Below are positions 53,216 to 59,428 of a DNA stretch of 64,000 bases, one piece after another (the stretch's first letter is position 1; every line of letters starts with the position of its first letter). The stretch covers positions 1-64,000 of the forward strand of contig CACNXC010000004.1 of assembly GCA_902624315.1 (NCBI GenBank), read 5' to 3'. The position numbers and the translations under genes were made by a program. Source of the stretch: an uncultured Pelagibacteraceae bacterium (GTDB taxonomy: Bacteria > Pseudomonadota > Alphaproteobacteria > Pelagibacterales > Pelagibacteraceae). The notes under the pieces were generated by a model. That model was given only the letters and a program-made list of their open reading frames with translations. It ran no database searches and was not told the DNA's origin.

Positions 53216-55827
<2,612 letters not shown>

Positions 55828-55832
55828 GAGTA

Positions 55833-57062
55833 ATGGCCTCTAGCAGAGATGATTTTATAATAGCAATTCGTTCTGCTTTTTTAAAAAAAAGCACTCAGCA
55901 AAAATTTTCTCTACTTACTTTAGTATTTATTTCTATATTTATTATCCTTTTATCAAGCCTAGACTTTAAGGCAGTAAGATATCTGAAGGCTGGATTAAGT
56001 GAGGTGGTTTATCGATCATCTTTTATTGTCTCTATACCTGAAAACTTTGTCAGGAATTCATTTATTAATATAATTGAATACACAACATTTTTTAATAGAT
56101 ATCAAAATAATAGAGATGAATTGGATAAACTTAAATCTGATTTTGTATCTAACGAAATTATTCAGTATGAAAATCAAGAACTGAAGGTACTAATTGATGA
56201 TTATATTTCAAGTTCAAATAAAATTTTAGCAAAAATAATTGTTGATCATGATAGTCCCTTTCTAAAGAGCATAATCATAAATAAAGGAAGTAAAGACGAT
56301 ATAAAAATTGGTACAAATATTTATGATCAATCTTATTTAGTTGGTCGGGTAATTGAGGTGAATTATAAAACATCAAGGGTATTATTGTTATCAGATTTAA
56401 ATTCTAATGTTCCAGTAACAATTGCCCCTCAAAATATTCAAGCAATAGTCACAGGGAGCGGAGACAATTTTGGACAAATTAAATATATTAAAGCGGGTTT
56501 GTCAGAGGAGTTAGTTGATGAAAGTATAGTTTACACCTCAGGTACTGGAGCAATATTTAAAAGTGGAGTACCAATAGGCAAATTAAGATCTAAAAAAATT
56601 GGTTCTTCTAATAGATACAACGTTGAATTCTACAGCGACTTTACACAATTAAAATATGTTTTTGCAGAAACAATCACTCAAATTGAAATTCCTCAAGTTG
56701 AACCAGAAATAGTTCCAATTGAAGATAAAAGTGAAGAACTTGAAGAGTCAAAATTAAAGATTTTAGAAGATGAACTTAAAATTATTGAGGAGACTAATTC
56801 AAAATTTATAGAAGAAAATGAAAATTTAACTAGTGAAATTAATGATTTAAACAATCAAATTTCAGTTTTAAATAATGAAATTTTTTTACAAAAGCAAAAA
56901 ATCAATCAATTCAATATTGATACTCAAGAATTAGAATTTTTAAAGTTAAACTTAGAACATGGTCATAAATGTAGAAAATCTTTTTTTAATGCTGATGGTT
57001 TTAATGTTGGAACTGAAGAGTACAAGAGTTGTGTTTTAAATGGAGGTAGAACAGGTGGCTAA
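55833..57062 (+). CDS. mreC: rod-shape protein MreC with long C-terminal extension
   Basis: 409 aa, against roughly 270-370 for most MreC. A membrane helix (residues 26-42), a coiled coil (about 90-120) and the beta domain (IVDHDSPFLKSIIINKGSKD, LVGRVIEV, VTGSGDNFGQIKYI) make the normal protein to about residue 285. An acidic coiled coil follows (about 295-365), then a terminal motif with Cys380, GF 389-390, GT 393-394, Tyr397 and Cys400. The tail should lie in the periplasm; the two cysteines could form a disulfide. Confidence 0.93.
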   Translation: MASSRDDFIIAIRSAFLKKSTQQKFSLLTLVFISIFIILLSSLDFKAVRYLKAGLSEVVYRSSFIVSIPENFVRNSFINIIEYTTFFNRYQNNRDELDKLKSDFVSNEIIQYENQELKVLIDDYISSSNKILAKIIVDHDSPFLKSIIINKGSKDDIKIGTNIYDQSYLVGRVIEVNYKTSRVLLLSDLNSNVPVTIAPQNIQAIVTGSGDNFGQIKYIKAGLSEELVDESIVYTSGTGAIFKSGVPIGKLRSKKIGSSNRYNVEFYSDFTQLKYVFAETITQIEIPQVEPEIVPIEDKSEELEESKLKILEDELKIIEETNSKFIEENENLTSEINDLNNQISVLNNEIFLQKQKINQFNIDTQELEFLKLNLEHGHKCRKSFFNADGFNVGTEEYKSCVLNGGRTGG

Positions 57063-57561
57063 CTTAAAGACAAAGGGAACATTTTCTAAATTATATACCT
57101 GGTTACCAATAATTTTCTTATTTGTCTCAGTGCTCAATGAATTTGATTTTAATTATTTAAAACTTGAGTATTTTTCTTTTAATTTCCCATTTATTTTGAT
57201 CTTTTTCTTTACCTTAAAAGATTTTAAACATTTTGATTATCTTTTTGTATTTTTTGCAGGTTTGCTCAACGACACTGTTATAGGTTTGCCCCTAGGTATT
57301 AGCAGCTTGTCTTATACACTAATTTGTATTGCTACGGCATATATTAGAAATATAACAATTAGGCCAAGTCCCATGAAAGATTGGTTCTACTTTTTATTTA
57401 TAATAAGTTTGATTAACTCTTTAAATTACTCAGTTTTAAGTTTATTCTTTTCGTACAATTTGGTTTTAACGAGTTATCTAGTTAACACGACTTGTACATT
57501 TTTACTTTATATAATTTTTGTATCAATATTTAAATATTACATGAAAGGAATTAATGATTAA
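57055..57561 (+). CDS. mreD: rod-shape protein MreD
   Basis: 168 aa from GTG at 57055 (MANLKTKGTFSKLYTW), chosen because GGAGGT lies seven bases upstream (57042-57047); an in-frame ATG at 57040 would overlap that site and mreC more deeply. Five or so membrane segments (WLPIIFLFVSVLNEF, FPFILIFFFTL, YLFVFFAGLLNDTVIGLPLG, WFYFLFIISLINSLNYSVL, TCTFLLYIIFVSIF). The FFAGLLNDTVIGLPLG loop is characteristic. Confidence 0.92.
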   Translation: MANLKTKGTFSKLYTWLPIIFLFVSVLNEFDFNYLKLEYFSFNFPFILIFFFTLKDFKHFDYLFVFFAGLLNDTVIGLPLGISSLSYTLICIATAYIRNITIRPSPMKDWFYFLFIISLINSLNYSVLSLFFSYNLVLTSYLVNTTCTFLLYIIFVSIFKYYMKGIND

Positions 57562-59428
57562 TTCTTCAAGTGATAATGTAAAGAAACTTAACTCTATTAA
57601 TAGAAGAATGTTCATTACAGGTTCATTAAAATTTTTTGTAATGATAGGAATAGTCAGTAGATTATTCTTTTTACAAGTTAAAGAAAATAAAAAGTATTTA
57701 ACTCTTTCCGACAAAAATAGAATTAGAGAATGGAAGCTAGCTCCTGTGAGAGGAGAATTTCATGATTATTTTGGTAATGTTATTGCAGGAAATTTTGAAG
57801 CTTATCAACTCCACGTGATACCAGAACAAGTTGAAGATTTTAGGTATGTTATATATCGATTAAAAGACTTACTAGAATTATCAGATAACGAATTTAAAAA
57901 AGTATTAAAAAAGAAAAATGAGATAAAGCCTTGGGAAACTTTAATTGTTTCTGATAATTTAAGTTGGCAAAAGTTTTCAAAGATCAATAATCATTTGTAT
58001 GATTTAAATGGGGTAAAACCAGTTATATCTATTTCTAGAAACTATCCTTTTAAAGAAAATTTCACACACTTAGTCGGCTATGTCAGTCAAGCAAACCAAG
58101 ATGATATCGAATCAACACAAGCCATAAAAAAGAATTTTGTCCCAGGTTTAAAAGTTGGAAAAGTAGGTTTAGAAAAGACATTTGAGGAAAAACTAATAGG
58201 TACCAACGATATTGAGAGATATGAAGTAAATGCTTATGGCAGAAGAATAAGTCAATTGGAATTTCAAAAAGGTGAAAAAGGTAAAACTTTAAGACTAACC
58301 ATAGATACAGAGATACAAAAGTTAGCTAATGAATTATTAAAAGATAAAGCAGGTTCTATCTGTGTAATGGATATTTATACAGGTGCAGTAATTGCAATGC
58401 ATTCTTCACCATCGTTTGATCCAAATTTATTTGTATTTGGTATTAGTCAAGATGATTGGCAATTAATTCGAAATGATCCAATGAAACCATTAGTTAATAA
58501 AACTTTACAAGGGAATTACTCACCAGGTTCAACGATTAAACCAATTGTTGCCTTATCTGCTTTAGAGAATGGAATAATTAATACAAGTTTTACAGTTAGA
58601 TGTACTGGTAAAACAGAAATGTATGGCCAAACTTATCATTGCTGGAAGAAAAAAGGCCACGGTTATGTAAGTTTAAGAAATGCCATGAAGCAATCTTGTG
58701 ACACCTATTTTTATGAAGTTGCTCGTAAACTTGGTGTTGATAAATTGAGCGAAACTGCAAAAAAATTTGGCCTTGGAGAAAAAGTTTTTGGTGATTTATT
58801 TGATATTGAAAAAAAAGGATTAATTCCAAATACTCAATGGAAAAAAAATGCTCTGGGTAAAGGATGGTTATTAGGTGAAACAATAATAACAGGAATTGGA
58901 CAAGGCTACATACAAACTACCCCAATTCAATTATGTTTAATGACAGCGCAAATTGCAAATGGTGGTTATAAAATTTATCCTCATCTTGTTGTAGATGACA
59001 AAGTTAAAGATCAGCCTATTGATAAATTTATACCACTCTATAAAAATTCAAAAAATATTAAAATTGTCCAAGATGCTATTTTTGGATCAACTAATGAGGT
59101 GATGGGTACATCTTATCGTTCAAGAATTGATAACCCAAAATATCAGTTTGCTGGAAAAACCGGTACAGCGCAGGTTAAAAAAATTACTGAGGAAGAAAGA
59201 GAATTAGATCTTAAAACATTCCAGATTCCATACGAGCAAAGAGATCATGCTTTGTATGTAGCCTTTGGTCCATATAAAAATCCTAGATATGCATTAAGTA
59301 TCATTGTAGAACACGGAGGAAATGGAAGTACAACGGCTGCACCCATGGCAACTAAATTATTTAAATTGATTATTGATCGGCACAAGATGAGAGAGTCATT
59401 AGGAAATAAAAAGTATTTGGAGATATAG
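57554..59428 (+). CDS. mrdA: penicillin-binding protein 2 (elongasome transpeptidase)
   Basis: 624 aa class B PBP. One N-terminal helix (FFVMIGIVSRLFFLQV), pedestal domain with APVRGEFHDYFGNVIAGN, transpeptidase with Ser326 in SPGSTIKP, Ser381 in QSCDTYF and KTG in AGKTGTAQV. It cross-links wall during elongation with RodA. Overlaps mreD by eight bases; rodA begins right after the stop. Confidence 0.97.
   Translation: MINSSSDNVKKLNSINRRMFITGSLKFFVMIGIVSRLFFLQVKENKKYLTLSDKNRIREWKLAPVRGEFHDYFGNVIAGNFEAYQLHVIPEQVEDFRYVIYRLKDLLELSDNEFKKVLKKKNEIKPWETLIVSDNLSWQKFSKINNHLYDLNGVKPVISISRNYPFKENFTHLVGYVSQANQDDIESTQAIKKNFVPGLKVGKVGLEKTFEEKLIGTNDIERYEVNAYGRRISQLEFQKGEKGKTLRLTIDTEIQKLANELLKDKAGSICVMDIYTGAVIAMHSSPSFDPNLFVFGISQDDWQLIRNDPMKPLVNKTLQGNYSPGSTIKPIVALSALENGIINTSFTVRCTGKTEMYGQTYHCWKKKGHGYVSLRNAMKQSCDTYFYEVARKLGVDKLSETAKKFGLGEKVFGDLFDIEKKGLIPNTQWKKNALGKGWLLGETIITGIGQGYIQTTPIQLCLMTAQIANGGYKIYPHLVVDDKVKDQPIDKFIPLYKNSKNIKIVQDAIFGSTNEVMGTSYRSRIDNPKYQFAGKTGTAQVKKITEEERELDLKTFQIPYEQRDHALYVAFGPYKNPRYALSIIVEHGGNGSTTAAPMATKLFKLIIDRHKMRESLGNKKYLEI

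What the first reader, a model, noticed from the sequence alone, without database searches (positions are those of the whole stretch)
55833..57062. MreC with a second coiled coil and a terminal two-cysteine motif
After the normal beta domain (to about residue 285) the protein continues about 120 residues: an acidic coiled coil and a C-x(8)-GF-x(2)-GT-x(2)-Y-x(2)-C motif (Cys380 to Cys400). Similar GF..GT..Y..C endings occur in small exported alphaproteobacterial proteins. Appending this to the elongasome scaffold suggests an extra periplasmic docking site, possibly redox-sensitive.
Basis: partly seen in the sequence, partly recalled or inferred. Interest (0 to 1): 0.52.

Follow-up and report, generated by a model that had tools for sequence, protein, structure and literature searches.

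The report
MreC with a disulfide-capped helical rod
In one group of the ocean bacterium Pelagibacter (SAR11), the cell-wall scaffold protein MreC carries an extra flexible linker, a long helix and a small tail with the protein's only two cysteines; the add-on is conserved and most likely gives the wall-building machine one more contact point in the periplasm, but its partner is unknown.

Summary
Window 55833-57062 encodes a 409-aa MreC in an ordinary mreB-mreC-mreD-mrdA-rodA cluster. The MreC core ends near residue 281. About 125 extra residues follow: a variable acidic linker (282-305), a predicted helix (300-380) and a conserved tail, FLxLNLxxGHKC-x8-GFxVGTxEYxxC (Cys380, Cys400). All 79 extended relatives read have exactly two cysteines, both in the tail; 22 unextended relatives have none. 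Helix and tail are under purifying selection (dN/dS 0.13 and 0.11; linker 0.51). The extension occurs in only one genus (69 of 397 genomes of the order) and only in part of it (7 of 18 in a sample). The tail alone is predicted with high confidence (pLDDT 94) as helix, turn, short helix. DsbA-like and DsbB genes are present, so a structural disulfide is the simplest reading; nothing supports a redox switch. Best explanation: a tethered helical rod capped by a disulfide-stapled hairpin, acting as an extra periplasmic docking or self-association arm. New variant of a known kind; partner unknown.

The parts
55833..57062 (+). mreC gene, 409 aa, with C-terminal extension
55905..55961 (+). predicted transmembrane helix, residues ~25-43
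   Evidence: hydrophobic stretch in the translation; helix 27-42 in a low-confidence model
56010..56222 (+). N-terminal periplasmic coiled-coil region of MreC, residues ~60-130
   Evidence: position between TM helix and beta core; helices in model; dN/dS 0.109
56235..56663 (+). MreC beta core (PF04085), residues 135-277
56676..56747 (+). acidic variable linker, residues 282-305
   Evidence: 9 of 25 residues D/E (counted over 282-306); identity 23% among relatives; dN/dS 0.51
56730..56972 (+). predicted continuous helix (second coiled coil), residues 300-380
   Evidence: model pLDDT 69-89 by ten-residue block, 94 overall for residues 344-409 modelled alone; identity 56% over 306-362; dN/dS 0.13 over 306-368
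56937..57047 (+). conserved terminal cap FLKLNLEHGHKC-x8-GFNVGTEEYKSC and following residues, 369-405; Cys380 at 56970-56972, Cys400 at 57030-57032
57055..57561 (+). mreD; likely GTG start at 57055 overlapping the mreC stop (the ORF list starts it at ATG 57040)
   Evidence: alignment with relatives whose mreD begins at this point; sequence
57554..59428 (+). mrdA (PBP2), usual MreC partner
54793..55827 (+). mreB

Best explanation
This is a genuine elongasome MreC whose last beta domain is followed by a flexible acidic tether, a roughly 80-residue helical rod (about 12 nm if straight) and a small terminal cap. In the cap the end of the long helix and a short second helix are stapled by a Cys380-Cys400 disulfide formed in the periplasm by the Dsb system, with the GFxVGT segment as turn and helix start. 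The arm most likely gives MreC an extra attachment point, either pairing MreC molecules through the rod or binding a partner on the wall or outer-membrane side through the cap, while the core keeps its usual roles with MreB, MreD, PBP2 and RodA. Shown: sequence, conservation, selection, restriction to part of one genus, motif sharing with exported proteins, a high-confidence helix-turn-helix model of the tail alone, and Dsb genes. Inferred: the disulfide bond, rod length in the cell, and the docking or self-association role.
For: MreC identity and core. All 79 extended relatives have exactly two Cys, both in the tail; 22 unextended ones have none. Purifying selection on rod and cap with a relaxed linker. 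Tail model pLDDT 93.8: helix to Cys380, turn, helix 395-402 holding Cys400. DsbB and a DsbA-like thioredoxin in the same genome. The same kind of cap on other exported SAR11 coiled-coil proteins and the end motif in small lipoproteins. MreC is known to use separate surfaces for different partners and to self-associate (PMC5626683, PMC8137920).
Against: No partner identified. MreD, PBP2 and RodA show no matching cysteine change. Heptad periodicity is weak. Many close relatives do without the arm. The Cys-Cys distance could not be read from the model, and the full-length model was poor (mean pLDDT 54).
Confidence: 0.5

Rival explanations
1. The rod and cap serve only MreC-MreC assembly: the second coiled coil dimerises or caps MreC filaments and the cap is just a stabilising terminus, with no outside partner.
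For: MreC self-associates into filaments and tubes in other bacteria (PMC8137920, PMC8804602); rod under purifying selection; the cap also ends or interrupts coiled coils in other SAR11 exported proteins.
Against: The linker is long and variable, which would uncouple the rod from filament geometry; the cap is at least as conserved as the rod.
Confidence: 0.28
2. A redox-sensitive switch: the cysteine pair opens and closes to control MreC binding or elongasome activity.
For: Two invariant cysteines in a periplasmic protein.
Against: No CXXC; the same paired-Cys motif occurs in unrelated lipoproteins, which fits a structural staple; no matching Cys change in neighbouring partners.
Confidence: 0.06
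3. A near-neutral tail: a helix acquired by fusion, kept without a specific function.
For: Absent from many relatives, including some of the nearest clades.
Against: dN/dS about 0.11-0.13 in rod and cap, invariant cysteines in 79 of 79, retention in streamlined genomes, tail divergence proportionate to core divergence.
Confidence: 0.1

Closest known systems
MreC (PF04085, TIGR00219), e.g. Pseudomonas aeruginosa 6ZLV and Escherichia coli 7EFT
   Same: N-terminal membrane anchor, coiled coil, beta core, mre cluster order
   Different: P. aeruginosa MreC ends in a flexible Ala-Pro-rich region (PMC8137920); here there is an acidic linker, a long helix and a two-cysteine cap
Unnamed small alphaproteobacterial lipoproteins with C-x3-G[FY]-x2-GT-x2-[YF]-x2-C (e.g. 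L155, L158, L161)
   Same: G[FY]xxGTxx[YF]xxC ending, two cysteines, flanking helix-like sequence, exported location
   Different: C-x3 spacing there against C-x7 to C-x11 in MreC; free lipoproteins rather than a tail on MreC
Exported SAR11 coiled-coil proteins with the same cap (G456 protein L065:5526-6515; G086 trypsin-like protease L064:4220-5764; G090 protein in L172)
   Same: charged, helix-like stretch followed by the cap motif, signal peptide
   Different: no MreC core; the cap is internal there and further sequence follows

Membership tests
MreC | beta core domain PF04085 above curated cut-off | tested here: met
   103 bits against 28
MreC | whole-protein family model TIGR00219 above cut-off | tested here: met
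   96.8 against 92.75 bits
MreC | located in the mreB-mreC-mreD-mrdA-rodA cluster | tested here: met
MreC | binds PBP2 and MreD, supports rod shape | not testable with these tools
   needs experiment
Alphaproteobacterial C-GF-GT-Y-C lipoprotein motif | G[FY]xxGTxx[YF]xxC | tested here: met
   window residues 389-400; a profile built only from non-MreC proteins finds the MreC tail in G000 and G003 at E 0.001, though those proteins had been picked by a pattern of the same shape
Alphaproteobacterial C-GF-GT-Y-C lipoprotein motif | first Cys three residues before GF | tested here: not met
   eight residues here, 7-11 among relatives
Alphaproteobacterial C-GF-GT-Y-C lipoprotein motif | lipoprotein signal peptide | tested here: not met
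   MreC is membrane-anchored by its own TM helix; most motif carriers have a lipobox
Thioredoxin-like redox switch | CXXC or thioredoxin domain | tested here: not met
   no Pfam match above cut-off; cysteines 20 residues apart
Known peptidoglycan-binding tails (LysM, SPOR) | Pfam match | tested here: not met
   none listed at E <= 1 for the extension or at E <= 10 for three tails

The most novel reading that the evidence does not exclude
The arm is a periplasm-spanning strut that ties the elongasome scaffold to the outer membrane or to an outer-membrane lipoprotein through the disulfide-capped hairpin, and the same hairpin is a general helix-capping adaptor of alphaproteobacterial envelopes.
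Probability: 0.15. Interest if true: 0.6.

Novelty: new variant of a known kind. Interest (0 to 1): 0.42.

Why it matters
MreC is a core scaffold of bacterial wall elongation; where described, its C-terminal end is a flexible Ala-Pro-rich region. Streamlined SAR11 genomes rarely keep extra sequence, so a conserved 125-residue arm in part of an abundant marine genus suggests a lineage-specific contact in the wall-building machine. It also points to a two-cysteine hairpin motif that recurs in alphaproteobacterial envelope proteins and found no Pfam family here.

Tried and rejected
Full-length structure prediction gave a poor core (pLDDT 54, shallow alignment), so its fold search was meaningless. 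The tail model had no match in solved structures, and the tail profile only noise there (E 0.67). Viral contigs and plasmids held no relative of the tail. Coevolution with partners: PBP2 lacks a 10-35 residue transpeptidase-domain loop in the main extended clade, which looked like a correlated change, but the extended G074 keeps the long loop, so the link was dropped. A recent transfer of the tail alone to G074 was considered; its tail is about as divergent as its core, so there is no support. Single origin of the extension: not rejected by the MreC core (AU p 0.55), but the PBP2 tree puts extended G074 beside unextended G026 with full support; left unresolved. The profile-profile match between the MreC tail and the lipoproteins (hhalign 96%) is not independent evidence, because those proteins were chosen by a pattern with the same letters.

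Full report
What is there. The ORF at 55833-57062 (+) encodes 409 residues and lies in the order mreB, mreC, mreD, mrdA (PBP2), rodA. Pfam and NCBIfam place it in the MreC family above curated cut-offs, and solved MreC structures are its nearest sequence matches in the PDB. The core domain ends at residue 277 by Pfam, and the last residue aligned to unextended relatives is about 281. The remaining ~125 residues match no Pfam family above its cut-off.

The extension is real. A search of 118 genomes of the family found a match to the query in 103; only 7 of 18 genomes of the same genus carry the extension, and the unextended ones read end near residue 280 with mreD directly after. A scan of named genomes returned 80 loci from uncultured Pelagibacteraceae, Pelagibacterales single cells or 'Candidatus Pelagibacter ubique', all matching through residue 402 or further. 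The window's protein is identical to that of isolate AG-905-M18. Of 79 read in full, every one has exactly two cysteines, both in the tail; 22 unextended MreCs have none. Across 397 genomes of the order the tail profile matches 70 at E <= 1e-5, all of one genus: 69 lie in MreC-length frames and one is the separate G456 protein. None of 289 genomes drawn from the class matched outside that genus at E <= 0.01.

Selection. Over 233 pairs of relatives (not independent), dN/dS is 0.07 in the beta core, 0.11 in the first coiled coil, 0.51 in the linker, 0.13 in the second helix and 0.11 in the tail. Mean identity among extended MreCs is 76, 64, 23, 56 and 64% for the corresponding parts. So the arm is a constrained rod and cap on a freely varying tether.

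Structure. A model of residues 344-409 from 42 sequences is confident (pLDDT 93.8): one helix up to Cys380, a turn, and a helix at 395-402 that contains Cys400. In the full-length model the helix runs from 300 to 380, but the core there is unreliable. Heptad periodicity is only weakly supported, so 'coiled coil' is likely rather than shown. I could not read the Cys-Cys distance; a disulfide is inferred from the invariant pair, the helix-turn-helix arrangement and the presence of DsbB and a DsbA-like protein.

The motif elsewhere. C-x3-G[FY]-x2-GT-x2-[YF]-x2-C occurs 12 times in 142 alphaproteobacterial genomes against 3 for the reversed control, mostly in short lipoproteins with the motif between helix-like stretches. 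In SAR11, G[FY]-x2-GT-x2-[YF]-x2-C occurs 10 times in 118 genomes against 0. Five of these are MreC tails; the others are a trypsin-like exported protease, an exported coiled-coil protein with two copies, a small exported protein, an enzyme that I read as orotidine phosphate decarboxylase, and a frame without a visible export signal. A further exported coiled-coil protein with the cap was found by profile. A profile built from non-MreC carriers finds the MreC tail as the only match in G000 and G003 (E 0.001). MreC differs in the spacing after the first cysteine (7-11 residues rather than 3), so I call it a look-alike cap, not a member. Whether it is homologous or convergent is open.

Origin. 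The MreC core tree allows one origin of the extension (AU p 0.55), but the PBP2 tree needs two changes with full support: extended G074 sits beside unextended G026. The tail of G074 is about as diverged as its core, which argues against a recent transfer. Gain-and-loss against two gains is unresolved.

Function. The best-supported reading is an extra periplasmic arm for docking or self-association. MreC is known to present separate surfaces to PBP2 and to another MreC (PMC5626683) and to form filaments (PMC8137920; PMC8804602). A redox switch is not supported. Two paper searches, in an open-access library only, found none that describes a C-terminal module of this kind or treats MreC in SAR11.

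Strain names from memory. I did not verify this with a tool.

Noticed in passing
57040-57062: mreD overlaps the mreC stop. The ORF list starts mreD at ATG 57040, but relatives align from GTG 57055, so the true start is probably 57055.
   Followed up: partly
57554-59428 (PBP2, near residues 480-495): PBP2 of the main extended-MreC clade lacks a 10-35 residue transpeptidase-domain loop that unextended relatives have; extended G074 keeps it, so it tracks ancestry, not the MreC arm.
   Followed up: yes
L064:4220-5764 (-): Exported trypsin-like protease of another SAR11 genus carrying the same two-cysteine cap between a charged helix-like region and the protease domain.
   Followed up: partly
L065:5526-6515: Exported coiled-coil protein at a contig end in G456 with the cap motif; function unknown.
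   Followed up: no
L191-L220: Unnamed two-cysteine motif C-x3-GF-x2-GT-x2-Y-x2-C in many small alphaproteobacterial lipoproteins, sometimes in tandem; eight carriers gave no Pfam match above its cut-off.
   Followed up: partly
L187 (G074): G074 has the MreC extension but its PBP2 groups with unextended G026 at full support, so extension history and neighbour-gene history disagree.
   Followed up: partly
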